From positions 20,765,285 to 20,829,284 of the forward strand of contig CM055106.1 in assembly GCA_029204225.1 (NCBI GenBank): a stretch of 64,000 bases of DNA, given 5' to 3'. Below are positions 1 through 56,971 of this stretch, piece by piece; the stretch's first letter is position 1; each line of letters opens with the position of its first letter. Under the pieces are notes generated by a model. It saw only the letters and a program-made list of their open reading frames with translations, was not told the origin of the DNA and ran no database searches. The position numbers and the translations under genes were made by a program. Origin of the DNA: Diphasiastrum complanatum (taxonomy: Eukaryota > Streptophyta > Lycopodiopsida > Lycopodiales > Lycopodiaceae).

Positions 1-700
1 TGACACTCGTTCCTTATTTATTTTTATAAAAAGAATATTCAGACTCCAATGCCAATTGCAACAAGCAAAATGAAAATTAGAATCAATTCTGACCTAAGTA
101 TAATGATCAAAATAAAAGGAATGAACAACATATAGCAAAACTTACTTATTCTCGTATGGAATCAAGTAGAATTTGGCCACAAGACTACAATCGATGAAAT
201 ATAAAGCCTTTTCAAAATTGGCCTCTTTTGCCTTCATAGCACCCATGAAAAATGGACTGACAACAAAAATGATTTCCTTCAAATCCATACTAATACTATG
301 TTGCAAAAACATTTGGCCGACTTCAACAATCACATCTGTGATTTCTGAACTTTTATCTTTTAGCTCTATACAAAATTTGGGACCTAAGCTATAGCTTCTA
401 TATGAATCTGGAAGGAAAAAGTCAAAATAATTTCTGAACAAATCAATTTTATTGCCTAAATAAGTCTCATATTGATTGTAATGGTTAGAATAAAAAAAAA
501 TTGATGGTATGGGAATCGTATGGAATTCTAACAAAAAGTTATGTACAGGTTTTGAGTCCGATGCCTCAATAATACTAATAGTTTTTCAGTATCTTATCAA
601 CCTTCTCTTGGGTTATCTCCACCTTCAGTGAAGAAACCTTCTAAGAAGATGGACAGATAACAGAAGGAGGAGATGGTGATTATGTTTCTAAATCAGAATA
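1..700 (-). pseudogene. Ulp1-type (C48-like) cysteine protease, segment A, partial
   Basis: A degenerate, edge-truncated protease gene homologous to the one at 31,811-33,098. Exon 1 runs from about 700 down to 146: a Ser/Pro-rich start (about 655-700), a lysine-rich stretch, then an open frame to a GTAAGT donor at 145. About 90 bases further, at 49-51 and 46-48, codons for His-Trp begin HWSLNILFIKIN, the catalytic-His motif of Ulp1/SENP proteases. The segment B copy has the same motif after an 84-base intron at the same codon, with the junction codon split 2+1 in both. The acceptor AG appears mutated to AA here, and a frameshift lies near 580. LGP(K/L) followed by an aromatic-rich stretch is shared with the B copy. 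The catalytic Cys exon would lie left of the window. Family knowledge: Ulp1-fold enzymes cleave SUMO-like conjugates, and viral relatives process structural proteins. Confidence 0.75.
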
Positions 701-727
701 TAATTTAAAGGATAGAAAGATCCGATG

Positions 728-1256
728 TCACTTTGCAAGGACTACCTTAGGAGGAAGAGAAGTAGCTGGCCTATGAGATCCAGTTTTCTTAGGAACAGCT
801 TGTTTCCTTTTTCTCCTTGAGGTAGTTGGCAAGTCAGATCTATCTAGAGATAGGTCTCTGGAGGTGCTGGTGTTATCCACATGAAGATTTAAATACCAGT
901 CTTGAAGTCGTTTGAGAATAACGAAATTTTTAGGCATGATGGTAACACGCTTACCATGCACTGTCAGAAGATAGAAATCCTCAAAGAACTGGGACAAAAA
1001 ATCTTTTGCAGCACCCTGTAAGGCCTGCATGGCTGTCATGGCAAAACGAACATCTAACCCAATTGACAAGGTGACATTTCTAACAGATCGGCTGAAAAGA
1101 GTTCTAGGAATCAACAATTCAGTTGATCTCTGGAGTTTTCTGATCTCCCTCCACCAGACTTGCTTCCTGCCACGTCCACAGCCAGTACTAGGGGGACACA
1201 GACACGGGAAGACTGTAGAGACGATAGCACGAGTAGTGGCCCTTTGTCCTAGCCAT
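728..1256 (-). pseudogene. Histone H3-like gene with C-terminal extension, segment A
   Basis: The first codons at 1,256 read MARTK, as in histone H3. One frameshift near codon 6 moves into a frame that is open to the TGA ending at 728. That frame carries the whole H3 core: REIRKLQRSTELLI (alphaN), then RSVRNVT, RF...A..ALQ.AAKDFL, FFED and H.KRVTIMPK before the final helix. The N-terminal tail is divergent, with Gly/Arg/Lys, and lacks the usual K9/K27 contexts. After the fold come about 50 extra residues ending in a basic, Ser/Thr-rich tail (SRRKRKQAVPKK), which canonical H3 and CENH3 lack. The loop 1 region is not longer than in H3, so a CENH3 assignment is not supported. The start faces the dyad-motif array that also precedes gene P on the other strand. 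It is about 176 codons against 136 for H3. Confidence 0.85.
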
Positions 1257-1371: not shown

Positions 1372-2557
1372 GAGTATCGGTTTCGATAAGCAACGAAAAA
1401 AGACGAACTGATATTCTGTGCTCAAAAGTGATATCAGAAATATCGCGGCATCGATCTCGAGCATGAGGGGCAATGGCAGATACTAGGAGGTTGTTGGACG
1501 CGCTTGAGATCGATATTCAGATGTAAAATATGAAAATTTGCTAGAAAAAATCTAAAATCCATGGAGGTATTTATAAAGAACATTTCACACATGTGACAAA
1601 CTGACACATGATGTGTGGCATTATTCTAGTGATCCACGTGACATTCTGTACAGTAATTATGTCTCATTGATGACAGTCACATGGGTATTTGCCACGTGCA
1701 CTAATTTAATAGAGTCACGTGGCATTCTGCACGTGAGAACTGTCACATCAATAATTTTATGTGCAAACAAATATTTTAAACGACACATGTCGATCTCAAT
1801 TCCTCTCATTTTTGTGTCTGATATCGATTTCAAGCGCAATTTTCAATCTCATTAGCCTCCATTGGTACCCCCGCACTTGAAATCAATATTACTTTCTGAG
1901 ATATCGCTCTCAAACATGAGTTTTCATTACAATGTTCTCTGGCCAATGCATCCGCGTTCCAAACCGATACGAGAAGCCTTTTTGACACGCTTGAGATCGA
2001 TATTGCAAAAAAAACCTATTGCATTGATAGATGAATTATTCGAAACATGTGGCGTCATGTCATTGGCCCACGTGTCTATTCGTACATATCATTATTAATC
2101 ATTGATGATGGCACGTGGGCAATGACACGTACACCAATTATATCGTGCCACCTGTCATTCCACATGTGTCAATTGTCGCATCAATCATGATCTGTACGAA
2201 TGAAATCAACTCAGCAAATCAGAAAATGACACCTGTCTTATTGATCAGATTCCACATGTGTTTGTAAAGTTCTCATTTTCGGCCCAGTTTTTCACGCAAA
2301 TTTTTTGATTTCAGTGCCTAATATCGATTTCAAGTGCACTTTTTTTACCTATTTACACTCCGCTTCTATCTCCGCACTTGGAACCAATATTGGTTTCTTG
2401 GATATCGCTCTCAAGCACGTGTTTTGCATCGGACTTTCTGTCTCCCGTATACTCTCGCTTGAAACTGATACTCGATCCTGTGATATCTATCTCGAGCGCA
2501 TAGTTTGTTGAGATTTGATTTTGTGTTCTATTTCAGATTGCTTGAGACCGATATCTA
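1372..2557. promoter_or_regulatory. Array of dyad motifs between the H3-like gene and gene P (segment A)
   Basis: About 14 copies of a half-site near GATATCGATTTCAAGCGCA occur in both orientations. Three pairs are head-to-head dyads with identical geometry, two 19-nt half-sites around a 9-nt centre: 1,872-1,890 / 1,900-1,918; 2,373-2,391 / 2,401-2,419; 2,454-2,472 / 2,482-2,500. Other half-sites: 1,373-1,391, 1,417-1,435, 1,447-1,465, 1,499-1,517, 1,820-1,838, 1,986-2,004, 2,320-2,338, 2,537-2,556. Short CACGTG-type words and a repeated ACATGTG/CACGTGGC pattern lie at 1,600-1,780 and 2,050-2,270. The tract separates two divergent genes, so a shared promoter or protein-binding array is the simplest reading; a replication or recombination role is also possible. 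Confidence 0.8.
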
Positions 2558-2613: not shown

Positions 2614-4087
2614 ATGTCTAATTTTGATTACAGTCTGTTATCTTTTTTTCTTGAATTTGGTATAAGTGACAATATAGAGTATTTCAAGTCACATTTTTCT
2701 TCTTTTCTTTTTGTTCTTCCTTTTATTATAGAGGTACCTGGTGTGGAAGGATTTTTTGAAATTTATCTCAAATTTAAGTCTCTACTCAGTACCCCCTTAT
2801 TCAGATCTTAGAATAAGGACATGATTCATTATCAAGACTTGGTGGCACTCGACAGACATGCTTATAAAGCTAAGCTTGACATAATGTTTACCAAGTTGCA
2901 TAATGATTTCAAGTTTGTGGATGATTGTCAGCTACACAATAAAAAATATAGATTTATAGAGTTTCAGTCTGCATTTGTTTTTTTCCTTTTGTTAAAAAAT
3001 TCTGACGATTCAGATACTGCCCCTTCTACTTTTGAACCTGCTTCTTCCAATGGTACAAAATCTGACAAGTCCAAGCATGTAGATATAGAAACTTTTTTTT
3101 ATTGATACAAGTGTTAGTTTAGATGATTGTACAAATTTTGATCCTACTCGAAACAAGACATTGTTTATAGGCCCTAAAACTCCCACTACCCTTTCATCTT
3201 CTGATAAATCTCTAATCACATTGCCTACTTATAATATGGATAATAATTTTTTTTTGACACTATCGGATATATCGGATCTTTTTTATTTCACAGGGGCTGA
3301 GATTCTTTGCATTTTGAACAAAGAACTTCATGAATTTTCAGATATAATTGATTTTGATGCTGATGATTTTCTCCCTAGTGTTGATGATGGAAATAAAAAA
3401 AAAAATTATATAGGAAAAGATTGCTTGAAAATGGTTGTGGATGAAATGCACAAAAAAAAAAATGATCTATCTTCTGAAGAGGAGTTTCTCAGATTTCAAA
3501 GTCAGCTTGGTTTTCCAAAACCAACTGTCTATTCACTAACCATATTGACATTAAAAGGATGGAGAGACAATAATAAAAAAAGACAAAGCTGAATGCGTAA
3601 GTTTTGTATCTAAGTTATGTACTATTAGATCCGTTATGTCAAATTTTATACTGGAGCTTACTTTGGATTTTTTTTATTTCTAGAAAACAATTTTTCTTGA
3701 TGATTTTGCAATTTGTTGAGGAGGGCAAAAATCTTCTGTTGGAGAATTTTCAAGAAATTATGCACTGGGACATTATCTGAAGTTCTTCAAGAATAATGAG
3801 ATAATGTTGCCCATTCAAAATTTCATCGACATGGTAAAACAATGATTATGGCAATCAAGGCACTTTCTCATTTTCTTGGTGAAAACAATTTTAATAAGGT
3901 GCATAAAATAATTTTTGTAAAAAAAACTATTGCACATAAAATTTTAGGATATGGCCTAGTGAATTTCATGTTCAGATCATCTCATTTTGCATTGTATGCT
4001 GCCTACGTTGATCTGAGTAAGCATGAAAAATTGTTGCACGATTCTAAGTTGCAACTTTCATTAGAGAAAGTGTCAGAAGCAGAGTAG
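2614..4087 (+). pseudogene. Gene P, unknown conserved protein of the element (segment A copy)
   Basis: An unrecognised protein that aligns with the minus-strand copy at 28,635-29,816. The frame opens with ATG at 2,614, reads through one TAG at 2,809, and shifts once at a T-run near 3,095. It continues to a TGA at 3,590 just before a donor (GC|GTAAGT at 3,597). The acceptor TTTCTAG ends at 3,683, and coding texture with frame changes continues to 4,087. The best-conserved block is around 3,250-3,370: a gapless 29-residue match to the B copy with SD, D, EIL.I and EFSDIID in common. The upstream region is Phe-rich (SLLSFFLEF) and matches the B copy (KLLDFLN). No domain is recognised; the middle is acidic and low-complexity. 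The 3' end converges on gene Q. Confidence 0.7.
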
Positions 4088-5960
4088 ATATTGAAGAATT
4101 GTACTTCGTAAAAAATTTCATTTAATACACAAAATCTCTCTGTGTGTCTATTGCCTATTGACTTATATAAATTTGCATGTGTTTTGAAAAAAACTATAAT
4201 TCGTTGATTTTGTATTATGACGAATTTGGAATCTTTTGTAAAACCATTGGAAAAGTTGCAATATATAGCTGTTCTTTGTGCTAGTCCCACCATGTTGTGT
4301 GCTTTTATGAAATGCTGCTCTTGCTTGCCAATGAGATTTTTCCATTCCTTGTGAAGACTTCCACCATAAAAATAAAATACAAATCAGTAGCAACCAAATT
4401 CACTGGTTGTTTTTTGTATCATTTGTACATCAGTATTTGAAAATTTATCTTCTCTCAAGTATTTCACCATGTTGTCTAATTTTCTCCAAACTTCTACTTT
4501 GTGTACACGAGTAGATCCTTCTTCTTTGAAATCTTGAGTTGTCACTATTATCTCTTTTCAAACCGAATATTGAATCTTAATTTGTTTGCCAGAACAATTT
4601 GATAAAAATCTACGAGCTTTGGATCCTCTAATGCTTGGCTTGCATGGAATATTTCCTATTGTATTTTAACATGTAAGGCTGCTTTAGACAACACATCCTC
4701 TAATTTAGAGATAGCTTCCTTCACATATGTCTTTGGCTTAGAATTCCATGCAAACTATGTTGAAAGTGCCAATTCCAGGAATATTGAGTGGATCTCCATC
4801 CATGTGATTTTTTATGGTGGTAGGATATGACGTTCTATTAAATAACCATGAGAGAATGTCATGGTCTTCTTTCATCACCTATAAGAGAAACAAAAACTTG
4901 TTTTAGAATAATATTAACATAGAGAAGATTTCTCAAATGAAATTCATATTAGATTATCCCTATTGAATATATGAGAGAACTATCTGAAAGGCTGCCAACC
5001 ACCAAATATCATTTTTTTATTGAACATTGAAGTTGAGGCCTTTGGAGTCTTCTGAATTTGAAAGTATTCCATTCATGATCATAAGACCGACTCTCTCCAT
5101 TTTTTGTTCTTTTATAATTTCAGACTCATATAACTTGAGAACAACTATCAACTTGTTATTGACATTCTCATTTTGTAATACCATAAAAATTTATGATGAA
5201 TGTTAGTAACTGATTAATGTCAATAAATAAACTATTGGAATTGCTATATGCTAGACATTCCCCCTTTGAATAATACACTTCATTTATATGAGATGGATTA
5301 CCAACTATTGTCTGCATACCTTGGTTTAACATGTCTTTTTTTTTTTAAAGATGAAATGGTCGTGGAATTGGAAACTTTTTAATACTTACCTATGCAAATG
5401 CTTCATTTATCATCTTAAACATTGTTGCATATGCTTCTCTACTGATGCTAGAAAAATCACATGCCCCCTGAACCAATGTAGTGTCCAATATTTTTTCAAC
5501 TTCATTCATAATGTTATCAGTAACTGAAGTTCTAATCTTTTTCATTTTGTTATTGTTTAACATTGATTTCATAGATTTAGAAGTCAAAATAGAACCTAGT
5601 GAGTTTCCAATGGAAATTTCGTCGGCCAAATGGTCTTTAGCAACCAATGTTGATCTGCATTACAAACATAATGTTCATAAAACTGTCAATAGAGATTATC
5701 ATAATATTCACAGCAGCATAATAAACAAATCAATAGAAAGTTAAAATTAATAAATAATAGAACTAGTGATTATGATTGAATATAAAAGTTCAAGCAGTAT
5801 TAAACCAGTATAACTTACTTGAAAGCACTAATTTGTCTTTTTCAATAACCTCCTCTAGATGATAAATCACATATATCCTTGGTTACCAGTCTTTTCCTCT
5901 TGTTGTTTTCGACCTTTTTATTGAGCACATCCATATCATTAACAAGAGACAAATATGATA
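4003..5960 (-). pseudogene. Gene Q, unknown multi-exon gene (segment A)
   Basis: Four exon-like stretches follow one another on the minus strand with plausible splice sites. Exon a (about 5,960-5,819) is basic (KKVENNKRKR, NLS-like) and ends at a GTAAGT donor. Exon b (5,654-5,390) follows TGCAG, is open for 88 codons and ends in TAG directly before GTAAGT, which looks like a CAG changed by one base. Exon c (about 5,330-4,980) encodes a hydrophobic, helical stretch with WWLAAFQ, with one frameshift. Exon d (4,878-4,003) follows TTTCTCTTATAG and reads about 290 codons with several stops and shifts. The splice phase between a and b is consistent. No family is recognised, and no copy is seen in segment B. 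Confidence 0.5.
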
Positions 5961-7876: not shown

Positions 7877-8388
7877 TGTTATGTCCATGACCAGTAAGTA
7901 GGACTCAGTATACTCCTAGTCTTGGATACAAGGTACTCCAGTAAATCAAGTTGTTAATTATGCCACGTCATACTGGATGTGACCTGAAAGTAACTAATAT
8001 CCTTGTGAGGCCCAGAACACACTAAATGGAGTTTAGACAAGGTATGAGACAGTGTATGCATGTGTAGAGTTATCAATAGCAATTTTATGAATAGGTGGTC
8101 CATGCTTAGGACTCTATTCTAGATGAATCTATGTATAGGAAACTTAGGGCTATGCATGGCTATGTGCCCGGATGCTTACGGCTCTATAAGAAGAGGCCAA
8201 ACTCGCCGTACTTTGGATTGTGATCATGGATTCATTGCCAGGGTTTCACTCTACATTCATGTCTCTTGTTCCTTGGCTTGGGGGTGAAGCTTCTAGAGTT
8301 GATTGGTTGATTCTACTTGGTTGGGTTGTTCCTCCATAGTGTGTTTTCCATTGTGTGCTATCTTGTAAGCAGGATATTAGGGAGCTTC
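7877..8388 (+). mobile_element. Probable 3' LTR (Ty3/gypsy-like), right end uncertain
   Basis: It begins TGTTATGTCC directly after a polypurine tract, the usual arrangement for plant Ty3/gypsy 3' LTRs. A leader-like pattern with Gly-poor noncoding sequence follows. The right border is not proven: it lies between about 8,371 (…GTAAGCA) and 8,388, where minus-strand copia RT sequence begins. No second LTR of this family is in the window. Confidence 0.45.
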
Positions 8389-24639: not shown

Positions 24640-26790
24640 TCTTTTTTTTTTTTTTTTGTGGGAGATGGAGAAGAAGAAAAAGAGAAGAGAATCAGTAAAT
24701 GGTGGATCAGTATGGATGAGAATAGAGATAGAAATGGATTTTATCTAGCAGAGATGGAGATAGAAGATGAAATAGAGATGGGACAGAAGAATGATGGATG
24801 AATAGTGGTTGATGTGGAGGGAACTGATCGGCTTGATCTGAGGTTCATTCACTTGATTCAATCCAGGGATGTTGGATCTTGATGGATAATGTGATTGCAA
24901 CCTAGATTTGACAAGATCTGATCAGTTTCGGTTGGCTAATAGTGTGGCTTTAGCCCTTTTTCATGGGTTTTTTTTTTTTTTGAGATTTCTTCAGACCTGA
25001 GTGGATCGAACCCTCAAATTTCCTACAGTAGCTGTATCTTGACCATTTTTAAACAATGTGAGTTTTGCAAGAGTTCTCGATGGACAGATTTGTCAGGAGC
25101 TTGAAAAAAATCAGTTTTTTGGCACTTTTTGGCACTTTTTCTTAGATATTTGAAAATATAACCATTGGATCTTCACAAAAATTTTACAGTAGCCATATCT
25201 AGGTTATATCTATCTATAACACTTTTTTCGAAGGTTACTTCATTGCAAATTTCAGAAAATAATGGGAAAAGTGCATTTTTTTTTAGGTCTTTTTGCAAAA
25301 TTTTAAGATTTTCTGAGAATAAACCCTCTTTGACTGGTATACACTTGTATCTGAATCAGATTCACCTGCTCACCAAGCTGCAAGAGTTACTTCCCAAGAA
25401 AACTTAAAAAATCTTGAAAAAAGTGCATTTTTTTGGGGCAAAAATTTAAGATTTTTTGGTAACAAACCCTCTCAGACTGGTATGCACTTGTATCTAAGTC
25501 AGATTCACCTACTCACAATACTGCGAGAGTTACTTCCCAAGGAAACTCCATAAATCTTGGAAAAAGTGCATTTTTTTTGTAAAATTTTAAGATGTTCTAG
25601 GAACAAACCCTCACAGACTGGTATGCAATTGTATCTCAGTTAGATTCAGTTGCTAACCATGCTTCGAGAGCTACTTCCCAGGGAAACTCAAAAAAGCTTG
25701 AAAAAAGTGCATTTTTTGAGGGTTTTTTTGCAAAATTTTAAGATTTTCTGGGAACAAACCCTTGCAAACTAGTATGCACTTGTGTCTAAGTTGTTTTAAC
25801 CTGCTCACAAACCTTCAAGAGTTACTTCCCAAGGAAACTTAAAAAATCTTGAAAAAAGTGTATTTTTTTGGGGTTTTTTACAAACTTTTAGGATTTTCTG
25901 GGAAAATTCCCTTGCATATTGGTATGCACTTGTATCTTAGTCAGATTCAGCTGCTCACCAAGCTGTAAGAGTTACTTCCCTAGGAAACTCAAAAAATCTT
26001 GAAAAAAGTGCATTTTTTTGGGGTTTTTTTGGGCAAAATTCAGGATTTTCTGGGAACAAACCCTCACAGACTAGTATGCACTTGTATCTCAGTCAAATTC
26101 AGCTGCTCACCAAGCTGCAAGAGCTACTTCTTAAGGAAACTCAAAAAATCTTGAAAAAAGTGCATTTTTTTGGGATTTTTTGGCCAAATTTTGAGATTTT
26201 CTGGGAACTAATCTTTGCAGGCTGGTATGTGCTTGTATTTGAGTCAGATCCACTTGCCTACCAATCTACAAGAGTTACTTCCCTATAAAACTCAAGAATT
26301 TGTTGTTTGAGAAGGTTCTAGGCCACTTTTTGCTCTTGGGAACCTTCACAGGGGCACTTTTTTTTGGGATCTGACTCTCGCAGACTTGTCTGTGTCCTTG
26401 TCTCAGTGAGATGGAACTTTAGAGAGCTCTGAAAAGGTTACTTCCCAAGGAAACTCAAAAATGTATTGTCTGAGAAGGTTTTTAGCCATTTTTTGCTCTT
26501 GGGAACCTCACATGGACCCTTTTTTTTGGGATCTAACTCTCACAGACTTCTTTGTGTCCTTGTCTCAGTGAGATGGAACTTCAGAGAGCTCTACAAAGGT
26601 TAGTTTTGAATTTTGAAATTTTTTTTGATTTTTACAAAAGATTTTTGAATTTTTTGGGTTTTTCTCTTTTTCTTCAAAATCTATTGGGAAGTAACCTTCA
26701 CAGGCTTCTATGCAGGTCTGGGACAGTACCCTGGAGCTGCTGCCAATCATGCAAAGGTTAGTTCTTGCTGGTCTTTGAGAAATCAAAATC
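24640..26790 (+). repeat. Dispersed repeat E, copy 1, with about 150-bp tandem array
   Basis: The left part (24,760-24,990) matches 34,637-34,830. From about 25,160 a tandem array begins. The anchor gCAAAATTTTAAGATTTTCTG recurs at 25,295, 25,439, 25,579, 25,730, 25,880, 26,033 and 26,183, a period of 140-153 bp. Each unit carries ACTGGTATGCACTTGTATC and AGAGTTACTTCCCAAGGAAA. Two longer related units (about 170 bp) follow at 26,299-26,620. No protein-coding frame is supported. 26,790-27,141 contains poly-T and a GA-rich tract only. Confidence 0.7.
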
Positions 26791-28555: not shown

Positions 28556-28640
28556 GGACCGTTTTTCGAGCTTCCGCCTCGTCCGACATTTAACTTTTGG
28601 TCACTGTTTTTCGAGCTTCCGCCTCGCCCGACATTTAACT
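28556..28640. repeat. Direct repeat, two units of about 46 bp
   Basis: GTTTTTCGAGCTTCCGCCTC appears twice, each followed by GCCCGACATTTAACT or GTCCGACATTTAACT, 46 bp apart. The second unit overlaps the 3' end of gene P in segment B. Confidence 0.75.
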
Positions 28641-29816
28641 GGTACGGTTAACTTCAAACATTAGTTTGTTAAGCATGAGATGTAATAACTTCTCTGCATG
28701 CTCCTTGTAAAGGAGTCAAGAAAATAAATTTAGAATGATAGATAACAACACAAACTAAAATTTCAACACAATGTTTGAATAAAAAAACAATACAATATCA
28801 ATACCAATACCAATATAATATCTACTTACTAGATCATAATCATTGTATTCAACGACGTTTGTTCTGCTAATGTCATGTCCTCCAATGGCCTCTACATTGC
28901 CCGAGGGGATATACTGAGTCCTTGGAGGATATTTATTTCGGACTCCTCTGTAGGCAAAGTTTTTTCATAGGCTTTCGATTTTTCAATTATGGCCTCCAAT
29001 GCCTAATTGCTAGATTTCCAATTGCCATCCTTATCATAATCTTTCTTACTTTCAAAATCATTATATGTGTAATCAATAATGTCAGAAAATTCTGATAAAT
29101 GTTATGCAAAAATTGAGAGGATTTCATCCTCTCTCATATTCAAAACATCTTCTAAATCACTAAAAGAAATATAACTGTCATTATTTATAAAATAAACGAA
29201 AACACCGAGTAGAGTTAATAGATTAATGGGAGATGCAGATGGTGGAGAGTCAAAGAGGATTATAGAATGAGGGAGAGTTTTTTGATAATCGAAAGCCATA
29301 GATGCTTCATCTTCAACCCCTATATCAGTATCTACTACATCTACATCATCTGAAAAAGATGCAGAAGCTTCAATCATGGGAAGAACAAGAGATCCAACAA
29401 ACTCATCATCTGGAATTTCAACAGATATATAAAAGACAAACGCCATACTTTTGATTAGAAGATGACATTTTCTTTTGTAGATATCACAATATATATTTCT
29501 CTTAAAATGTTCATGCTAGCTAGTGTCCTTTCTATCATGTTTGTGCTTAGAGGATGGTTGGGAATGTACAAGGTCCTGAAAATGAACGTAACAAAAACTA
29601 TCTATATCCTTAACAGAAGTAGTAATAATTTGAGAAAAATTATCAAGAAGAGAAAGTAATTCATACGATTCTCCTCATAAACCAGCTTATCGATATCGAA
29701 AGGTGCAAAAAAAATAACAAAAAAATACTGTGATTTCTCTGATGGAATGTCACTGGCATTCAAAAAATCTAGAAGCTTGTTTTCTGAAGATGTTGATGAA
29801 CTAGCCTTATTAAACC
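28635..29816 (-). pseudogene. Gene P, unknown conserved protein (segment B copy)
   Basis: Homologue of 2,614-4,087. Coding texture begins near 29,816 just inside the motif array; no in-frame ATG remains. KLLDFLN corresponds to the LLSFFL start of copy A. A shift near 29,645 and stops follow, then a 115-codon frame (29,446-29,102) rich in Asp/Ser, one in-frame TAA, and the conserved block ending EFSDIIDY. The block matches copy A without gaps over 29 residues across the TAA. Further stops lie at about 28,985 and 28,880. A donor (GTAAGT) at 28,829 and acceptor at 28,704 bound a 126-base intron at the place where copy A has one; exon 2 ends in TAA at 28,635. Function unknown. Confidence 0.7.
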
Positions 29817-30712
29817 TGATATCGGTTCAACGGGCGTGAATGACTCCGGTTGGGGACATATGAACAAGGTGCACGTTGAATCAATATTCTATTGGTGAAG
29901 GTTAATATCGCTTCAAAGCACGTGAATAATTCCGTTCAAAAACTCTAGAACAAGACATGCGTTGATCCGATATTCTGTAGGAAGAGTCTAATATTGTTTT
30001 AGTGCGTGATAGTGATAAATTAAAAGGTCATAAAATAAAGACGTGTGTCGATCCGTTATTGCCAAAGAAAGCCAGAGAACAAAATGAAAAATGAGTTATG
30101 AAATAAATATCATGAAATCTCATTGAGTCAGGTGGTGCCCATATTAGTTAATCACAGCCATACATTTGTCAAAAATCAATTAAAGCCTGGGGCCTATATA
30201 TATCCACCAATCATAAAGATACAACATTGTACCTGCGCCACAATACCATAAAAGGTCAATCATTATTCTTTTCGAATCATCATTAGCCAGGACCCACTTG
30301 ACTAATTATAGCATTAATGGTTGTCACATTCCGTTCATCGGGATAAAAAAATGTTCACAAAGTGAATAATTACGAACGTTCTACCTATTTAAGGACAAAC
30401 AATATTTCAAAACAATTTGCAAACAAGGTTCATTCAGCACCTATTCAAAAGGCCGATCATTCAGAACATCTACAAGGGCTAGGGTGCGAGTTGGCTAGAT
30501 TTTCTGCAATGGTCACTTTGATATCAATTCAGCGCACCCAATTGAAGATAGATTAGTTAACATTTGGAAGGCGCACATCAAATCACTATTTGGACGGAAT
30601 AGGACACGCATTGATATCCCGCAATGGTTACCTTGATATCGGTTCAGCGCGCCCGATTGAAGATTGATTATTTTACATTTGAATGGTGCGAGTCGATTTG
30701 CTATTGGAGCGA
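29817..30712. promoter_or_regulatory. Dyad-motif array upstream of gene P (segment B)
   Basis: Half-sites near GATATCGGTTCAGCGCGCC occur in inverted pairs: 29,817-29,842; 29,870-29,891 with 29,903-29,927; 29,957-30,008 (pair); 30,041-30,063; 30,482-30,539 (pair); 30,570-30,598; 30,603-30,653 (pair); 30,684-30,712. Two pairs share a spacer core GCAATGGTyAC. The half-site is a diverged form of the segment A motif. The tract lies between the 3' end of the H3-like gene and the 5' end of P. 30,064-30,480 has no gene. Confidence 0.75.
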
Positions 30713-30847
30713 AAAAAAGATGTCGAAATCTGAGAAAATTATGAAGATAGTATATGAAAATTCGTTTGATATTTATGGCTTATCCTAGAATATCGTAGAC
30801 ATACATTTGTCAAGCAATCAATGGCAGTCTGATTTTCTTAAATGTCA

Positions 30848-31258
30848 TTAAATTTGTGGTTGTCCACTAATTATCTCATAATTATTATCATACGTGTCCG
30901 TAGCCTGAACAAGGGTGAGATCCTTCGGCATGATGGTCACCCTCTTGGCATGGACAGCTACAACAAGACTATTTGAAAAAAATTTCACCTGGAAATCCTC
31001 ATATGTAGTGTGTAGGGCTTCAACTGCTATCCATCTCACATCTACAAAGAGACTTCTTGTTACTTGTATGATGGATCTCTATCTGTGAGCTTTTGAAATC
31101 AGAAGATTATTGGTCTTCTGAAGCTTCCGGATATCCTTCAACCATGGCGGGTCTCGTGGTCTGCTCCTTGACCTAGGAGGAGGTGGTGGATTTTCTTGTC
31201 CTCCTTAAATAGGGATACCTCCAGGATAGATACGTGTAATTTGCTTCGTGCGAGCCAC
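30848..31258 (-). pseudogene. Histone H3-like gene, segment B
   Basis: A single continuous frame of 136 codons, the same length as canonical H3. The start is GTG at 31,256-31,258 instead of ATG, followed by ARTKQITR, then a Pro/Arg-rich tail (PPPPPRSRSRPRD). The histone fold follows: IRKLQKTNNLLI, RWIAVEALHTTYEDFQ, FFSN, VAVHAKRVTIMPKDLTL. Two in-frame stops break it, TAA at 31,205-31,207 (codon 18) and TAG at 31,079-31,081 (codon 60). Residues HAKRVTIMPKD match canonical H3 exactly, while most of the rest has diverged, so this is not a recent host H3 retrocopy. Its 5' end faces motif array 31,307-31,510, shared with the divergent Ulp1-type gene. No H4, H2A or H2B partner was found. Confidence 0.9.
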
Positions 31259-31306
31259 AAAGACCCAACGGACGCGTAGAGATCTCCCAAAAATAGATGC
31301 TAGATT

Positions 31307-31510
31307 GGGTGCGTCGAACCGATATTGAAATATATATTCTTTGATGAGCTACCAATAGTGGATGAGCGCGCGAGATTCAAGAAGAAAAGCTGATTAATTC
31401 TGACGGACGCACCGAACTGATATCGTAATCAATAGCGGATGGGCGCACATGAATAAAAAAGAGAAGCTAAGCAGTTTCTTCGAACGAGCTGAATTGATAC
31501 TTCATATGAG
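31307..31510. promoter_or_regulatory. Dyad motifs between H3-like and Ulp1-type genes (segment B)
   Basis: GGTGCGTCGAACCGATATT (from 31,308) with GGATGAGCGCGCGAG (to 31,373); GACGCACCGAACTGATATC with GGGCGCACATG (31,404-31,451); GAACGAGCTGAATTGATAC (31,481-31,500). These are the same half-sites as in 29,817-30,712, here in a divergent intergenic position. Confidence 0.7.
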
Positions 31511-31810
31511 TAGTAATGATCACAAATTGAAATAATTTTTTTTTAAGCATCGCGCAGGGCATTATATACTGCCATGATTCGTAATGATTGTCTTCGTGGT
31601 CTGGTGAATATTGAGGCCAAAGTACTTCAGACCAGTTCCGTCCTCTCCTCCAAAACAAGATGCAGAAAAGAAGAAATGGAAACACTCACAATTCAGGTAC
31701 AGAACAGGAGTGTTTAAAAAAAGAGGAGGTCTCTTGACTGTCCTAATAAAGCCAAAAAAATTTCAAAGTCGTTTCATCTGCAAGATATACTAACAACTAG
31801 ACAATCTCTT

Positions 31811-33098
31811 TTGAGGTCTCGTTCTCAGTCTCCTCCTAAGAATTTCTGTCCTCCTAAACATCTGTCTTCTTTTCTTCTCAAAAATCTTTCTCCTCTTAAA
31901 TCTCAGTCTCTTTCTTCTCTTTCAAAAGATTTTTCTCCTAATAAATCTCCTTCTCTAACATCTCAGTCTCCTAAATCTCAATCTCCTAAATCCTAGTCTC
32001 CTACTTTCTCCCATATTAGGCCCCCCCCTCCAACATCAGGAGTGGAGTTAGATGAGTTTGTAAATTTAAAAGTTGAAAAGATTTTAAATAACAATTTATT
32101 CTGTGGTTTATCTGTAACACTTTCTGCACCCCTTACACTTTCTTTTGTGAATTCTCCTCAATATGTATAGTATGACCAATTACTAAATACATATATTAAA
32201 GCTCTTGGTCCTCTATATAGTTTTAAGATGTCGAAGACTAATTTAGGTTTCCCCCTTAGTAAATTAGATATAGGTGAATAAGAAAGTAGGAATAATATGT
32301 TAGGCGACAATGTAGGAGGGGGGGGCATTCAATATTGGATGGAGTTTTTCCAGACCTCAATTTTTATAGATGTCGCATTGTTTCCTCTACAATTCATGGC
32401 TCTCTTTGATTTTATTGATTTTAAAAATCTACATGCTGATATGTTTCAATACGTCAGACTGAAGACTCTAAAACTCGTGCTCTCATACATAACTAAGTAA
32501 GTGTATGCTTTTCAGATTTAATTACATTGATTTTTTATTTTACAAGAATTCTCAAAATCATATTATTATTTTTATTACAGTGATCATTGGAGCTTAAATG
32601 TGTTATTCTTATATGTCAATGATGAGGGTGTGTGTAATCCAATTTGTTTAAAGATGAACTCTATTAATTACACACACCCACAAAATAACGAGGAGCCATA
32701 TGAAGAAAATACTAGAATTCTTTTCAATACCACGTGCAACAGCCTATACGAAGTTCAAAATGGTTGCAAAGGTAAATAAATTTTAATATCGGTTCGATGC
32801 ATGTCTCTAGTGTTTATAGTTTTTCATCTCATATTGTTCGTGTTGATCCAATATTTCATCAATACTTTTTAGATATTGATTCACACGAGCTTGTGGTCTT
32901 TGTTGATTTTAATATCATCTCGTGCGTGTTGATCTGATATTACATATAGTTAAAATTTTGTTACTAACTTTTGTAGATATTTAAAGACTACAGTCCTCCC
33001 AACAGGTTTATTCTATTAGCTGTGGTTGGTATATGGCATTCAATGCCAAATATTTTTTCAGTTGGTTTGTACTACATGAAAGCTTTCGAATCTGCTAG
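31811..33098 (+). pseudogene. Ulp1-type (C48-like) cysteine protease, segment B, three exons
   Basis: Exon 1 (to 32,496) is one frame from a Ser/Pro-rich start (SQSPPK-type repeats) broken by TAG at 31,994, TAG near 32,168 and TAA near 32,279. Intron 1 is 32,497-32,580 (GTAAGT...TTACAG). Exon 2 starts by completing Asn, then DHWSLNVLFLYVN with the catalytic His. PICLKMNSI stands where Ulp1 enzymes have LDS, so the catalytic Asp is Asn. Intron 2 is 32,772-32,976 and itself carries dyad motifs. Exon 3 keeps phase, has an in-frame TAA, then Q and SCGWYMAFNAKYF, the Gln and Cys-Gly of the active site. The TAG is at 33,098. The family deconjugates or processes SUMO-like modified proteins. An ATG start is not visible; coding texture may begin near 31,611. 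Confidence 0.8.
32790..32945. promoter_or_regulatory. Dyad motifs inside intron 2 of the Ulp1-type gene
   Basis: AATATCGGTTCGATGCATG (from 32,791), GTTCGTGTTGATCCAATATT (about 32,847-32,866), GATATTGATTCACACGAGC (about 32,874), and AATATCATCTCGTGCGTG paired with TTGATCTGATATT (about 32,921-32,945) match the half-site family of the intergenic arrays. Confidence 0.6.
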
Positions 33099-33718
33099 AA
33101 ATAATAATACGATGACAAAAAAAAAAAATGAAATGACATTGAGACCCATTTTTTTTGAATTTTTTAAATTTTTTAAAAAATATCCATATTTAAAATTCTT
33201 CAAATAAAGATATTATAATGTTAAAAAAATATTGTAGTGTATAAAAAAATTAATCAAGCTACAAAAATTTTGTTAATAGCTTTTTATTAATAGCTGCAAA
33301 TTATCTTATATGAAATAATACTACTATTCAAAATAAAATCATTAGACACCCAACCACTAAAATAACTATAAAAAAAAAATTCTTGTATCAAAAAAAATAT
33401 TTTTTAAATTATGACAAAAATTTTAATCAGTATTAAATCTTTACTTATATTTCAAATACCTATATGTGTTCATTGAATATTTAAACATTAAATGATTCTA
33501 AATAAAATTATTTCCAAAAACTTATTATAAAAATACAATGAAAAAAACCTGACAGTTCGTTGTAGTTTTAGTTTTGCTAATATTCAAATCATTAAAAAAT
33601 TACTAAATCTATATCTTTAATACGAACAAATTTAAAAATATTAAATTAATCAAAAAGATTTCATTACACAATATTTCAAGAAATATAAACGCAATTGTTT
33701 TTTAAAATAAAAGAGAAT
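33099..33718. other. Very AT-rich spacer, no gene
   Basis: Long A and T runs with no usable frame on either strand; this separates the convergent Ulp1-type and methyltransferase genes. It may hold their 3' untranslated ends. Confidence 0.6.
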
Positions 33719-34636
33719 TTATTCTTCTAAAAAATTATCAAGATCATTTGCGTTTTTCTCTTTTTCTTGAGGAGCCAATGTAGTGTCAACTGGCACCTCT
33801 TCCACAATTTTCTCGACAACTGTAACCACATTATAGTCCTGAACTAGGACATCAGCAAACTCTCATGTATCACTCACTTTCCCGCTAGCAGAAGGTTGGG
33901 GTTCCTTGGACAAGAGAATTACTGAGTTCTCATTATTCGAACTCTGTCCTACCTCAGCTAGTTCATTTGGCAAAATCGAAAGAGATTTAATTCTCATTTT
34001 TACAAAATCAACTAAATTAGAATCTAAATCTACTACAACACTATGCCTGTCAATCTGAATAGCACATGCGCTCATAGTGCCACTACTACTAAATAAGTCT
34101 AAAACCCAATCAATTGGATGAGAAAAAATATCAATTAAATGATTAATTAATTGTTGGCTTTTGGTAGGGACAAGCCACTAAACCCATCATTGGATTTTTA
34201 AGTTTTTTCATCACGGTTGGAGCCAAAACTTGTTAGTCCGGAGGTGTTGTAATGAAATATTGAACGCTTGCTATCCAAAGAATAATAACCAATGGTTATA
34301 TATTCTATTTCATTGCAAAGTTGCGCTCCTCCCAAGTTTCTGACATTGGGCTTGTACCTGACCAAAAACATTACAACTAAAATAAATAAAGAATTTCAAA
34401 TTGTTAAAGTTAACATTATTGTTTATACTAAATTTTAAATAAAACTTTGAATCAAAATATGAATAAATAATTCACGAACTTAAAGACTTACCACACAACA
34501 TTTTCTATTCTCGCGTTACAGAAAAGTTAATAAAGCTTTATGTATTGAAGCTGATTGCCAAGATGAATGAAAAATAACAACTTTCCATATAGGAGATGTT
34601 GTGATTTTGAGAAACCCTTGCATGAAACTATGGATT
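33719..34636 (-). pseudogene. DNA N6-adenine/N4-cytosine-type methyltransferase, segment B, 5'-truncated
   Basis: Exon 1 (34,636-34,492) carries VVIFHSSWQ and ends NARIENVVW. A 134-base intron (34,491-34,358; GTAAGT...GTCAG) splits the Trp codon. Exon 2 continues YKPN, NEIEYITIGYYS, then PTKSQQLINHLIDIFSHP and the SAM-binding motif I WVLDLFSSSGTM, followed by an acidic motif II position (VVVDLD). This order (motif I after the E-Y block and the P-T-K-L block) is that of the N6_N4_Mtase family (PF01555, beta-type circular order). Breaks: shifts near 34,510 and 34,190 and a TGA at about 33,861; an acidic tail ends at 33,719. The catalytic (D/S)PPY/W motif IV should lie upstream, but repeat E cuts the gene at 34,636, so base specificity cannot be read. 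FSGSGT has become FSSSGT. Such genes are rare in seed plants. Confidence 0.8.
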
Positions 34637-35690
34637 TCAGTGATAGAATAGAGATGGGACAGAAGAATGATGGATGGATAGTGGTTGATGTGGAGGGAAC
34701 TGATTGGCTTGATCTGAGGTTCATTCACTTGATTCGGTCCAGAGATGTTGGATCTTGATGGATAATGCGACTGCAACCTAGATTTGACAAGATCTGATCA
34801 GTTTCAGTTGGCTAATAGTGTGATTTTAGCCCTTTTTCTTGGTTTTTTTTTTCTTTAAGATTTATTTAGATATGAGTGAATATAACCTTCAAACTTCCTA
34901 GAGTAGATGTATCTGGACCATTTCTAGACAATGTGAGTTCTGCAAGGGTTCTTGATGGATAGATTTGTCAAGATCTAGAAAAAACTCAATTTTTGGCACT
35001 TTTTGGCACTTTTTCTTGGATATTTCAAACTATAACCATTGGATCTTTACAAAACTTTTATAATAGCCATATCTAGCTTAGATCTATCTATAAACTTCTT
35101 TGCAATTGTTACTTCCTAGCACATCTCAAAAAATCATGGAAAAAGTGCAATTTTTGGGGGGTTTTTTGCAAAATTTTAAGATTTTCTGGGAGAAGACCCT
35201 CCCAGACTGGTATGCACTTGTTTCTCAGTCAGATTCAGCTGCTCACCATGCTGTGAGAGCTACTTCCTAAGGAAACTCAAAAAATATTGAAAAAAATGCA
35301 TTTTGTTGGGGTTTTTTTGCAAAATTTTAGGATTTTCTAGTAACAAACCTTTGCAGACTGGTATGCACTTGTATCTCAGTCACATTCAGCTGCTCACCTA
35401 GCTGAGAGAGTTACTTCCCAAGGAAACTCAGAAAATCTTGAAAAAAGTGCATTTTTTTGGGTTTTTTTTTTCAAAAGTTTAGGATTTTCTGGGAACAAAC
35501 CCTCGCACACTGGTATTCACTTGTATCGCAGTCATATTTTTAGCTGCTCACCAAGCTGCAAGAGTTACTTCCCAAGGAAACTCAAGAAATATTGAAAAAA
35601 GTGCATTTTTTTGGGGTTTTTTGCAAAATTTTAAGATTTTCTGGAAACAAACACTTGTAGACTGGTATGAGCTTGTATCTAGGTCAGATT
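34637..35690 (+). repeat. Dispersed repeat E, copy 2
   Basis: Matches 24,760 onward, same orientation. The unit anchor recurs at about 35,168, 35,319, 35,472 and 35,623 (period about 151 bp), four units against seven in copy 1. Its left end truncates the methyltransferase; its right end abuts copia GAG-pre sequence near 35,691. Confidence 0.7.
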
Positions 35691-35826
35691 CACCTGGATG
35701 AAGCTTCCATAATCAAAAGTTCTATCTCTTCACAAGGTTCTTTTCATTCCCAAGCTTCAAAAGAATCTCATAAGTGTTGGCCAATTACTTGATGGTGGCC
35801 TTGATGTCAATTGCCATATTGACAAT
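35691..35826 (+). pseudogene. Copia GAG-pre fragment, left half of an interrupted element
   Basis: The frame VLFIPKLQKNLISVGQLLD...HIDN is a GAG-pre-integrase piece. Its next residues (CVIKKDGEIL) lie on the minus strand starting at 39,568. It ends in ACAAT (35,822-35,826), the target-site duplication of the copia inserted at 35,827. Confidence 0.8.
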
Positions 35827-53056: not shown

Positions 53057-56000
53057 ATGGCATCTATAAATGCATATCTTTTGGATACTAATGAAAGGCT
53101 CAACAAAACTAACTATTCCATATGGAAAGTTAGAATGGAATCTATCATGATCATGCAAGATCTGATGGAAATTGTAAATGGTAAGGAGGGTGAACCTATT
53201 CATCCTCAAGAAAAAGCCAAATAAATCAAGAGGTGCAATGTTGCAATACATTGCATAATAATGAATGTTGCAAATGAACTCTTAAGAGAGGTAGGAGATT
53301 GCACTTCAGCTCAAGATGCTTGGGAGACTTTTCAAAAGGTCTATGAATCCAAGAACCAAACTAGAATGTTAGCTTTGAAGAATCAAATCTATAGAAGCTA
53401 TCAAAAGAAAGGAGAGAGTGCACATACTTTTGTCCTAAGAGTAAAGGAATTGAACAAAGAGCTAGCCTTTATAGGTGATCCTATCAAGGATGAAGAGCTT
53501 GTTCAACTCATATTGAATGGACTAAGCTTTGAATTTGACAATTTGGTTCAGGGATATGCAATTATGGGTAAGCTACCCATACTTGAAGAACTCCAAGGCA
53601 CACTCATGGCCGAGGAATCAAGAAGGAGCCAAATGCAAGAGAGGATGGATAGGCTTTCCATCCAAGGTGGAGATGACCAAGCTCTCTTCACCAAAGGCAA
53701 AGGCAAGTCCAAAGGCAAAGTATCAACATTTAAGAAGTCTACAAAGCTTGAGGATCAAGAAGGACCCTCAAAGGCATCTCCATCAACCACCAAAGTCAAG
53801 AAGGACAAATCAAAGGTGAAGTGCTACTATTGTAGCAAGATGGGGCATTATGCCTCGGAATGCTTCAAGAGGAAGCAAGATCAAAGCCAAGCCAACATGA
53901 GCAAAGAGGAGGAGGAGGAGAGTTCACATGAGGACTCTCTCATGATGTCCATATTTTCTTCAACAAGCTTCAAAGGAGAAGATCCTTGGTGGATTGACTC
54001 GGGTGCTAGTTCACACATGACTAGTAAGATGGAGTTTTTCTCTTCTCTCTTATCTTATGATGGACCTATAAAGTCTATCTATACAGCAAATGATGAAGCT
54101 TGTAAAATTGAAGGAGTTGGTAGAATTCCCCTTTGCTTAGGATCTTCCAAAAAGATCAACATAGAAGGTGTTTTGTACATTCCTACAATAACAAAGAATC
54201 TACTAAGTGTTGGCCAAATGGTAGACAATGGTTTCAATGTTGACTTTGCTTCAAATGAATGTTTCATCAAGAAAAAGGGTAAGATAGTGGCTAAGGGCAC
54301 TAGACTTGGCAAACTTTATAAGTTGGATGCATTTGTGGATACTAATGTTGTCATGTTGGCCGAGAAGAGCAAGATATCTACTTTTACTTTATGGCACAAA
54401 AGACTTGGACATGTCAACTCGGGTTCCATGGAGGCTATGATCAAGGAGGAGTATGCTTTAGGCCTACCAAGGTCTATTGGGAAGGAAGACAAGGTTTGTG
54501 AAGCTTGTGCCTTATCCAAGGCACATAAGAAGGTGTTTCCTAACTCCATCACAAAGTCATCTCATCCTCTTGAACTCATACACTCGGATGTGCACATTGC
54601 TAGCACCAAATCTAATGGAGGTTCATCCATGTTTTTAACCTTCATTGATGACTACTCAAGATATTGTTGGGTGTTATTACTTTCCTTCAAGTCTCAAGTA
54701 TTTGATACTTTTGTAAAGTTCAAGTTGTTTGTGGAAAAGCATCATAATCATAGCATCAAGATTCTTAGAAGTGACAATGGTGGAGAATTCATCTCCAATG
54801 AGTTCAAGGCCTTTTGTGAGGAGGAAGGGATCAAGAAAGAGACTTCTTGTCCTTACACTCCTCAACAAAATGGAGTTGCTAAAAGAAGGAATAGAACATT
54901 ATGTGAATGTTCTAAGGCTTTAAGATTAGATGCTTGTTTGCCCAAATCCTTTTGGGGTGAGTCTCTTGTATGTGCAAACTACTTGATGAATAGGGTGTCT
55001 TGCAAAGCAATTGAAGACAAAACTCCTTATGAGATGTTGTATGGAAAGAAACCCAATCTTAATCACTTGAAAGTTTTTGGGTGTATATGTTATGTGCATG
55101 TGCCATTGGAAACAAGAACCAAGGAGGATCCATCTTCCACAAGAGGGATCATGCTTGGATATGCAAGCTCAAGCAAGGGCTACAAAGTCTATCTCCCATC
55201 CTTAAACAAATTTGTTGTTTCAAGGGATGTCATCTTTGATGAACATCATATGCATATACTTGAAGAAGGCTCAAGTGCTCCAACAATCAAGAAGAAGATG
55301 GCCGAGGAGCAAGATCTTGGTTTTGAGGAGGAGCTCATGGAGGAGCAAGCACCAAACCCACCTATCACACCAAGGAGATCTTCAAGGGCAAAAGTGGAGC
55401 CATCAAGGCTCACATATCAAGGCAAAGGACAGCAAGTTGAGGGTATCTCATCCACTTATTATGCTTTATCTAGTTTTGAAGAACCATCTAATGTTGAAGA
55501 TGCATTGAACTCCAAAGAATGGTATAAAGCTATGTTGGATGAGTATGATGCCTTGATTGAGAATGAAACTTGGTTGCTTGTTGAGAGACCTCAAAGGAAT
55601 GTAATAGGATGCAAGTGGGTCTTCAAGCTTAAGTTGAATGAAAATGGGAGTGTTAACAAACATAAAGCAAGATTAGTTGCAAAAGGTTATGCTCAAGAGA
55701 GAGGGATAGACTATGAGGAAACTTTTGCACGTGTGGCCAAGATGGTCACAATAAGGCTAATCATTGCACTTGCATCACATTTTGGATGGATTCTATGTCA
55801 AATGGATGTCTCTAATGCTTTCTTGAATGGTTTTTTGGAAGAGGATATCTATATGGAGCAGCCACAAGGGTTCATCAAGCATGGTATGGAGAACAAAGTA
55901 TGCCATCTCCAAAGAAGCATCTATGGCTTGAAGCAAGCCTCGAGATCTTGGAATTCAAGACTACATTGCTATCTTATTTCACTTTCTTTTGTTCAAAGTG

Positions 56001-56971
56001 AATATGATCCCACTCTTTACATTAAGTTTGATGATGTTGTTATTTTACTTTTACTCATTTATGTAGATGACATCATCATTAGTGGAAATAGTGTTGATGG
56101 TATTGAAAAAATCAAGATAGATCTATCCTTAGAGTTCAAGATGGTAGATCTAGGGTGTCTTCACTTCATCTTAGGCATAGAAGTACTTAGAGGATCTGAT
56201 TTTATCTTTATAAGTCAAGTAAACTATGCTCAAAGTCTTTTGAAGAAGTTTAAGATGGAAGTATGCAAAAGTGTTGACACACCAATGGAGCAAGATGTAA
56301 AAGTGCCAAATGAAGATGATGAAAGATCCTTCATGGACATCACTTTGTTTAGGCAACTTATAGGCTCCTTAATGTGGATCACTATAACTAGACCAGATCT
56401 TAGCTTTAGTATATGTAGGTTGAGCCAATCCATGCAAAAGCCATTGAATATCCATTGGAAAAAGGCTAAGAGTATTCTAAGATACATCTCGGGTACATTG
56501 GATTTTGGGATTCTATATAGAGGAGATGTGATTAACCTTCATGCATTTAGTGATTCATATTTTGTAGGGGACAAGAGAGATAGGAAATCAACAAGTGCCT
56601 ATTCAACTTTCATAGGAGAAGGTGTGGTTTCATGGCTTTCAAAAAAGCAAGAAACTATATCTCTATCTTCAACCGAGGCCGAGTACAAAGCTTTGACAAC
56701 CACTACAAAGGAGGTACTTTGGATCAAGAGATTATTGGTGGAGCTAAAGATCATGGATTCAGAGGAGGCACCAATCATCTACAATGACAATATATCAGCC
56801 CAACACCTTGCATCTAACCCAATCTTCCATGCAAGATCTAAGCACATTGAGATATGCCATCACTTTGTGAGAGAAATGGTGCAAGCCAAGGAGATTGCTT
56901 TGGAGCATGTTCCAAGCAATGAATGTGTAGCTGATCTACTTACTAAACCACTTCAAAGACACCTTTTATGA
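53057..56971 (+). pseudogene. Ty1/copia polyprotein, nearly intact (1,305 codons)
   Basis: One frame from ATG 53,057 with a single TAA at codon 56 (53,222-53,224). Domains in order: gag (LDTNERLNKTNYSIWKVRME), zinc knuckle CYYCSKMGHYASECFKRK, protease PWWIDSGASSHMT, GAG-pre LWHKRLGH...CEAC, integrase with SDVH, SDNGGEF and, 36 residues later, Lys in QNGVAKRRNR at the catalytic Glu position. RT follows with YEETFARVAK (usual FAPVAK) and LIYVDDIIISG, then RNase H (STEAEYKAL, YNDNISAQ, HARSKHIE). The frame ends at QRHLL*; a one-base shift there removes the usual tail KFRSSLGVISKAM. The leader 52,259-53,056 has no gene. The element looks young, but this copy would lack integrase activity. Confidence 0.95.

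What the first reader, a model, noticed from the sequence alone, without database searches (positions are those of the whole stretch)
28635..34636. A gene-rich element combining a histone H3-like gene, a Ulp1-type protease and a DNA methyltransferase, present twice
Segment B carries, within 6 kb, gene P, an H3-like gene, a spliced Ulp1-type protease and an N6/N4-type DNA methyltransferase. Segment A (1-5,960) carries Ulp1-type, H3-like, P and Q genes. P and Ulp1 align between the segments, with introns at matching sites. Host genes of these kinds are not clustered in plants, and no retroelement carries such a set. A mobile or viral element that brings its own histone, protease and DNA-modifying enzyme would be new for plant genomes. 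Large DNA viruses can encode all three classes, so an endogenised virus is a real alternative.
Basis: partly seen in the sequence, partly recalled or inferred. Interest (0 to 1): 0.95.

Follow-up and report, generated by a model that had tools for sequence, protein, structure and literature searches.

The report
Clubmoss element carrying a histone gene
Two decayed pieces of an unknown repeated element in a probably clubmoss genome carry a histone H3-like gene, a possible SUMO-type protease, in one piece part of a DNA methylase, and rows of a private paired DNA motif, which looks like a genetic parasite that carries its own chromatin tools.

Summary
Segments A (1-~5960) and B (28635-34636) both hold a real but mutated H3-like gene and gene P. 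B also holds the motif-I half of an N6/N4 amino-methyltransferase. The protease rests on motifs only (HWSLN box, shared intron site, Gln...Cys-Gly box); Pfam does not recognise it, even cleanly spliced. P and H3 are homologous between A and B (0 of 300 shuffles). The one database relative of P, and the closest relative of the H3 tail, are from Diphasiastrum complanatum, a clubmoss.

New here: both segments carry a private 18-bp motif as inverted pairs 52-56 bp apart (5 in A, 8 in B; none elsewhere in the window or in shuffles), between divergent genes and in an intron. Halves do not co-vary as in an RNA stem. In A, H3 and protease look like one broken fusion gene; in B the H3 part is inverted.

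Not found: element ends, a transposase, or viral relatives. B is truncated inside genes.

Best reading: fragments of one multi-gene mobile-element family that may use a VANC-like, sequence-specific anti-silencing system built on an H3-protease protein. Mobility and mechanism are inferred.

The parts
1..585 (-). Segment A protease (Ulp1-like by motif): exon 1 585-146, intron 145-56 (GTAAGT donor, acceptor reads CAA), exon 2 55-1 with WHWSLN; runs off the window edge
   Evidence: exon-junction match to B scores 69, 0 of 1000 shuffles as good; first exon alone not significant; no Pfam C48 hit
586..730 (-). A: Pro/Ser-rich linker between H3 tail and protease, in the H3 frame, broken by stops; supports one H3-protease gene
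   Evidence: Diphasiastrum P0003 aligns in frame across A's stop at 728-730; resemblance to B's 31997-32100 is by eye
731..1256 (-). A: H3-like gene with MARTK N-terminus (frameshift after it), histone fold, basic C-terminal tail RKRKQAVPKK
   Evidence: Pfam 1.3e-19; CENP-A/H3 in PDB 4e-19 to 3e-17 in the 60 rows shown; AF2 helices 29-44, 54-64, 73-102, 108-133
1418..2555 (.). A: array of inverted motif pairs (RATATYGNTYTCAAGYRC ... 53-56 bp ... reverse) between the H3 start codon (1256) and the P start codon (2614)
   Evidence: pairs 1447/1500, 1820/1873, 2320/2374, 2401/2455, 2482/2538
2614..4084 (+). A: gene P, broken (stop at 2809, frameshifts), with a likely intron at 3597-3683 (by eye)
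   Evidence: 68% over 97% of ORF 3089-3589 to P0001 of Diphasiastrum; tblastn 53% over 416 columns with stops
4387..5951 (-). A: gene Q, several short exons, tentative model; clearest ORF 5393-5659
   Evidence: only the 5393-5659 ORF was searched: no credible family hit, no viral relative
28895..29826 (-). B: gene P (ORF 29105-29515 and flanking pieces); its C-terminal part was not found towards the left border
   Evidence: two stretches 0 of 300 shuffles each; the N-terminal stretch is weaker, 13 of 300
29818..30705 (.). B: array of inverted motif pairs (RATATYRGWTCRACGCRC form), 53-bp register, between P and H3
   Evidence: pairs starting 29818, 29904, 29990, 30520, 30635; the third and fourth have one weak half (5 mismatches)
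30851..31258 (-). B: H3-like gene, GTG in place of ATG then ARTKQITR, two stops, short C-terminus
   Evidence: Pfam 7.3e-11; match to A 39 of 104 residues, codon-position differences 60/35/67
31309..31448 (.). B: motif half-sites and one pair between the divergent H3 and protease genes
   Evidence: pair 31354/31407, half-sites 31309 and 31431
31718..33095 (+). B: protease gene: basic and Ser/Pro-rich start, exon to 32496, intron 32497-32580, exon 32581-32771 with NDHWSLNVLF, third exon with SQQVYSISCGWY
   Evidence: identification by motif only (no Pfam hit); stops upstream, frame of the third exon uncertain
32785..32941 (.). B: two motif pairs inside the second protease intron
   Evidence: 32785/32838 and 32872/32924 (the latter with one weak half, 6 mismatches)
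33722..34623 (-). B: beta-class N6/N4 amino-methyltransferase; motif X and I half is clear (33866-34177), N-terminal half eroded and cut at the right border; TSPIW near 34590 may be a remnant of catalytic motif IV
   Evidence: Pfam N6_N4_Mtase 3.3e-8; RsrI/MboIIA in PDB 0.004-0.006; CcrM NCBIfam 1.2e-6, far below its cut-off; motif names recalled, motif IV by eye, no family hit for that piece

Best explanation
Segments A and B are broken fragments of one family of multi-gene mobile (or formerly mobile) elements, probably of Lycopodiaceae. Shown: shared P and H3 genes, shared gene order, shared protease intron site, and private inverted motif pairs with a fixed 52-56 bp register. Inferred: an element protein (P, or the H3-protease product) binds the motif pairs in the element's own divergent promoters and introns. 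There the H3-like domain and the SUMO-type protease replace or undo silenced chromatin, and the amino-methyltransferase may mark element DNA. In effect it would be a sequence-specific anti-silencing system like the VANC proteins of Arabidopsis VANDAL transposons, but with a histone domain.
For: P and H3 homology between A and B (0 of 300 shuffles each), with fewest changes at second codon positions: H3 60/35/67 (p 0.005), P 76/44/72 (p 0.009). Same protease intron site and donor. 13 inverted motif pairs at 52-56 bp (5 A, 8 B) with distances 40-70 bp allowed; none in the other 52 kb, none in 100 shuffles of each segment. Both halves changed alike in 4 of 90 positions (5.0 expected) in A and 3 of 144 (9.3 expected) in B, so a DNA site fits better than an RNA stem. 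Arrays lie in noncoding stretches, including an intron, as for VANC targets (PMC5735166, passages). Some VANC genes carry a Ulp1 domain (PMC13317346, passages). Clubmoss relatives lie on a 36-kb and a 64-Mb contig.
Against: No transposase, integrase, terminal repeats or target duplication seen. P and Q have no known domain, and the AF2 model of P failed (pLDDT 30). No experiment links any protein to the motif. The protease is not recognised by Pfam. The methylase is seen in B only, Q in A only. The motifs were defined from these same sequences, so the counts are post hoc (the fixed distance was not part of the definition), and four of the 13 pairs have one weak half with 4-6 mismatches. Three other generic motif forms gave few or no sites in A (0, 2, 0), so A and B forms differ. 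VANC sites are same-orientation tandem motifs, not inverted pairs.
Confidence: 0.4

Rival explanations
1. Endogenised fragments of an unknown large DNA virus of lycophytes. H3-like, adenain/Ulp1-type protease and amino-methyltransferase would be packaging, maturation and restriction-type genes, and the motif pairs promoter or replication-origin sites.
For: The gene classes occur in large DNA viruses (recalled). Private repeated promoter-type motifs and divergent or convergent genes fit a virus-like layout. P and the methylase have no cellular relatives outside clubmosses in the word-limited searches made. One unnamed viral protein matches the H3 model (E 0.008, probability 1.00), as would any H3-like protein.
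Against: No relative in viral contigs in five scans or in phage records for the methylase. No capsid, polymerase or packaging gene among the pieces scanned. Spliceosomal-type intron at a matching site. The H3 has the ARTK N-terminus of cellular H3 (compare P0004 and P0006).
Confidence: 0.2
2. A multi-gene DNA transposon of a known superfamily (MULE/VANDAL-like, hAT, CACTA) that captured a host H3 gene and a Ulp1 domain; the transposase lies outside these fragments.
For: Plant MULEs with Ulp1 (KIU) are known (passages), and fungal hAT elements that captured histone H3 are known (PMC6710886, abstract). B is truncated and A runs off the window, so a transposase could be missing.
Against: No transposase domain in the pieces scanned (of Q one exon only). 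The H3 is far from solved H3 proteins (37-45% in the Foldseek rows shown) yet shows constraint, so it looks like an old working part and not a recent passive capture. No ends seen.
Confidence: 0.25
3. Decayed duplicates of an ordinary host gene cluster (an H3 variant, a SUMO protease, a methylase) that happen to lie in a repeat-rich region.
For: Genes of these classes exist in plants (recalled). All copies here are broken. One H3-tail relative is on a 64-Mb contig of Diphasiastrum.
Against: P found one relative among 222 word-sharing candidates and the methylase none at E<=0.01 among 37. A and B share order but their proteins are about 30-40% alike, with no significant DNA match (best E 0.085). 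Private motif arrays occur in both. Host genes would not be expected to share such arrays.
Confidence: 0.12

Closest known systems
VANDAL transposons with VANC anti-silencing proteins, including Ulp1-bearing KIU forms (Arabidopsis MULEs)
   Same: Clusters of short, element-private motifs in noncoding stretches and introns; a Ulp1-type domain in some; motif and protein differ between subfamilies (passages)
   Different: VANC motifs lie in the same orientation in tandem repeats, here inverted pairs at 52-56 bp; no MULE transposase seen here; the review read does not contain the words histone or methyltransferase
hAT elements that captured histone H3 in Dothideomycete fungi
   Same: A mobile element with an H3 coding sequence (abstract)
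   Different: There a host housekeeping H3 sequence, amplified and inactivated by RIP; here a divergent H3 conserved as protein between distant copies, with other genes
CENH3 / CENP-A and other H3 variants
   Same: Histone fold; top PDB matches are CENP-A
   Different: Long basic C-terminal tail and probable fusion to a protease; A lacks the two extra loop residues of CENP-A in that alignment; located in a repeated element
N4CMT of bdelloid rotifers
   Same: A bacterial-type N6_N4 methylase resident in a eukaryote, tied to transposon chromatin (passages)
   Different: N4CMT is a host gene fused to a chromodomain that helps silence transposons; here the enzyme is in the element, broken, and without close relatives

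Membership tests
VANDAL/MULE transposon | MULE-type transposase | tested here: inconclusive
   No transposase domain in scanned A/B pieces, but both fragments are incomplete and only one Q exon was scanned
VANDAL/MULE transposon | Dense private motif arrays in noncoding regions bound by an element protein | tested here: inconclusive
   Arrays present; binding not testable here; orientation differs from VANC sites
Ulp1/C48 protease | His-(Asp)-Gln-Cys catalytic layout (recalled) | tested here: inconclusive
   HWSLN and SQQVYSISCGW boxes in B in order; the Asp position reads Asn by eye; no Pfam hit
Histone H3 | H3 histone fold and ARTK N-terminus | tested here: met
   Pfam 1.3e-19 and 7.3e-11; PDB H3/CENP-A; N-termini; AF2 and Foldseek H3, best E 3.6e-5 (TM-scores low, 0.31-0.56)
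Beta-class N6/N4 amino-methyltransferase | Motif IV (S/D-PP-Y/W) followed by X and I (recalled) | tested here: inconclusive
   X and I clear; motif IV only a possible TSPIW remnant; first Gly of motif I reads Ser
Endogenous large DNA virus | Capsid, DNA polymerase or packaging ATPase and viral relatives | tested here: not met
   None in the fragments scanned; five viral scans empty; fragments are incomplete
DNA transposon (any) | Terminal inverted repeats and target-site duplication | tested here: inconclusive
   No 10-base inverted repeat and only A-rich 9-base direct repeats at B borders; borders cut genes; shorter duplications not tested

The most novel reading that the evidence does not exclude
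A selfish element that builds its own chromatin: an element-encoded H3-protease fusion is assembled on the element's 71-bp dyad-symmetric sites (two 18-bp half-sites in a 53-bp register, close to five helical turns). Those promoters would then carry a self-made nucleosome-like or tetrasome-like particle that resists host SUMO-dependent silencing, with a bacterial-type methylase marking self DNA.
Probability: 0.1. Interest if true: 0.97.

Novelty: new variant of a known kind. Interest (0 to 1): 0.8.

Why it matters
Transposons that fight silencing with their own DNA-binding proteins are known from few systems (recalled; VANC is the one read here). An element that carries a constrained histone H3 of its own, joined to a deSUMOylation-type protease and tied to a private dyad code, would show a parasite acting on the nucleosome itself. 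It would give clubmosses, a neglected lineage, a testable system for element-specific chromatin.

Tried and rejected
RNA hairpins: disfavoured because paired halves do not co-vary and Rfam has no match at gathering scores in the window. Against this, four of five A pairs fold better than shuffles (z -2.9 to -3.3, the fifth -1.6), as any inverted repeat would; the eight B pairs run from z -2.2 to +1.4. LTR reading of the 24754-26300 / 34630-35696 repeats as borders of B: rejected because they are about 75-85% alike with internal tandem repeats of about 150 bp, and B's right border falls inside the methylase gene. Resemblance of the B motif to a tRNA B box: noticed by eye, not tested. AF2 of P failed (pLDDT 30), so no fold search was run on it. 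AF2 of the H3 worked moderately (67.9). P has no PDB hit at E<=10. Q exon: weak hits (isopentenyl phosphate kinase 0.0027, far below cut-off; Ty5 Gag 0.049 and NDX homeobox 0.066; PHROG 0.06) were taken as chance. Protease, cleanly spliced: only a Macro-domain hit at 0.24 in A and nothing in B. Papers: the rows listed by the ten searches (one search listed 10 of 170 papers, 10 of 14) showed no report of this element; that library lacks most subscription journals. Seen of papers: PMC5735166 passages; PMC10398659 abstract and outline; PMC13317346 passages; PMC6710886 abstract and outline; PMC6117577 passages; PMC8885841 passages; the rest listings only.
Full report
Where it comes from. The window is plant-like DNA rich in Copia pieces (ORFs, recognised by eye). 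Gene P of segment A has exactly one relative at E<=10 among 222 word-sharing candidates: hypothetical protein O6H91_Y509900 of Diphasiastrum complanatum, 68% identical over 97% of the searched ORF. The H3-like ORF of A has 11 hits among 54 candidates; one is O6H91_10G071800 of the same species, 70% identical over the basic C-terminal tail, and the others are H3-type proteins. The window is therefore probably from a clubmoss (Lycopodiaceae). Its own genome could not be searched.

What is in the segments. A, left to right: protease (-), H3 (-), motif array, P (+), Q (-). B: P (-), motif array, H3 (-), motif half-sites and a pair, protease (+) with two motif pairs in its second intron, methylase (-). 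Turned round, both have the order P - H3 - protease, but H3 points the other way in B. Inverting a block made of part of the array and H3 turns one layout into the other. H3 is certain: Pfam 1.3e-19 in A and 7.3e-11 in B. CENP-A and H3 head the PDB list, and the model has the H3 helices (Foldseek best E 3.6e-5, TM-scores only 0.31-0.56). Both keep the H3 N-terminus, MARTK in A before a frameshift and ARTKQITR in B after a GTG. P is homologous between A and B in two of three stretches tested at 0 of 300 shuffles; the third, the N-terminus, is weaker (13 of 300).

Broken genes, past constraint. All genes seen have stops or frameshifts, so neither copy is active. Yet differences between A and B by codon position are 60/35/67 in H3 (104 codons) and 76/44/72 in P (124 codons); second positions change least (p 0.005 and 0.009). 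In the other comparisons (P N-terminus 16/12/20, P middle 47/42/51, protease first exon 12/8/15) the positions do not differ significantly, and the protease first exon shows no significant A-B match on its own (197 of 300 shuffles as good). The pattern points to protein-level constraint on H3 and P while the lineages diverged.

The protease. The A-B match sits at the exon junction: LIPYENNWHWSLNILFIKINKERV against VLSYITNDHWSLNVLFLYVNDEGV (24 columns), score 69, 0 of 1000 shuffles. The intron is at the same codon and phase with a GTAAGT donor in both; A's acceptor reads CAA. B has SQQVYSISCGWYMAFNAKYF downstream. These fit the Ulp1/adenain His...Gln...Cys layout (recalled). No Pfam (and 87 with clean splices), NCBIfam or PDB hit supports it, so 'Ulp1-like' is a motif reading, not shown.

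H3 joined to protease. In A the frame of H3 continues past its first stop (728-730) with residues that match the clubmoss protein P0003 (KXHRIFLSF against KRPRVFLSS and on to the Pro-rich stretch). The next stretch, CPSSXKVSSLKVEITQEKVDKILKN, lines up by eye without gaps with B's RPPPPTSGVELDEFVNLKVEKILNN at the start of its protease. The simplest reading is one gene, H3 - basic tail - linker - protease, in the A type. This is inference from three partial sequences.

The methylase. ORF 33866-34177 matches N6_N4_Mtase over motifs X and I (3.3e-8), RsrI and MboIIA in the PDB (0.004-0.006), and phage and CcrM-type DNA methylases. Of 37 word-sharing candidates in the protein collection none reached E 0.01, and phage records gave none at 0.001. 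The N-terminal half is eroded and ends at B's right border.

The motif pairs. With a core pattern (RATATCGRTTCAANGC, 3 mismatches) A has 6 sites, B 12, the other 52 kb 0; 60 shuffles average 0.75 and 0.60 (maxima 3 and 4). Three other forms gave A/B/rest 0/2/0, 2/9/2 and 0/7/0, so A needs its own form. The full 18-base forms with up to 4 mismatches also hit the rest of the window 28 (A form) and 2 (B form) times, so single weak sites mean little. Pairs are decisive. Allowing any distance from 40 to 70 and at most 6 (A form) or 7 (B form) mismatches in the two halves together, 5 inverted pairs in A lie at 53, 53, 54, 54, 56, and 8 in B at 53 (seven) and 52. One A pair and three B pairs have one weak half (4, 5, 5 and 6 mismatches). 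A ninth B hit, at 49, has 7 mismatches in one half and is a lone half-site. None falls in the rest of the window and none in 100 shuffles per segment. A and B motif forms differ, but the register is the same. Co-variation speaks against an RNA stem, though most A pairs fold well, as inverted repeats do. Closest neighbouring pairs repeat at 81 bp in A and 86-87 bp in B, so arrays probably grew by tandem duplication, as reported for VANC targets (passages).

Borders. B begins where a Copia gag fragment ends and stops inside the methylase. No inverted repeat of 10 bases joins its edges, and the only direct repeats of 9 bases are two A-rich ones; shorter duplications were not tested. A's right end lies before Gypsy-like sequence (by eye); its left end is outside the window. 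Element ends and a mobility gene therefore remain unknown.

How it most likely works. Shown: two related gene sets, past constraint on H3 and P, private paired sites in divergent promoters and an intron. Inferred: a self-encoded protein binds the pairs; H3 and protease act on element chromatin; the whole counters host silencing. The nearest parallel read here is VANC. The viral rival has no positive support in these collections, apart from one unnamed viral protein that matches the H3 model weakly.

Noticed in passing
window 53225-56968 (+): A 1248-residue uninterrupted Copia-type polyprotein ORF, so a young Copia element lies beside old decayed ones.
   Followed up: no
window 25230-26300 and 35100-35696: Two arrays of ~150-bp tandem repeats, about 75-85% alike, part of a longer repeated unit whose shared stretch begins at about 24754 and 34630, the latter close to B's right border.
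   Followed up: partly
window 7866-7890: Polypurine tract followed by TGTTATG, like the 3' end of a Gypsy element (by eye), to the right of segment A.
   Followed up: no
window 28560-28640: A ~35-bp sequence (TTTTTCGAGCTTCCGCCTCG.CCGACATTTAACT) present twice at B's left border, not obviously Copia-like.
   Followed up: no
window 5393-5659 (-): Gene Q exon of unknown family; Q and P converge tail to tail.
   Followed up: partly
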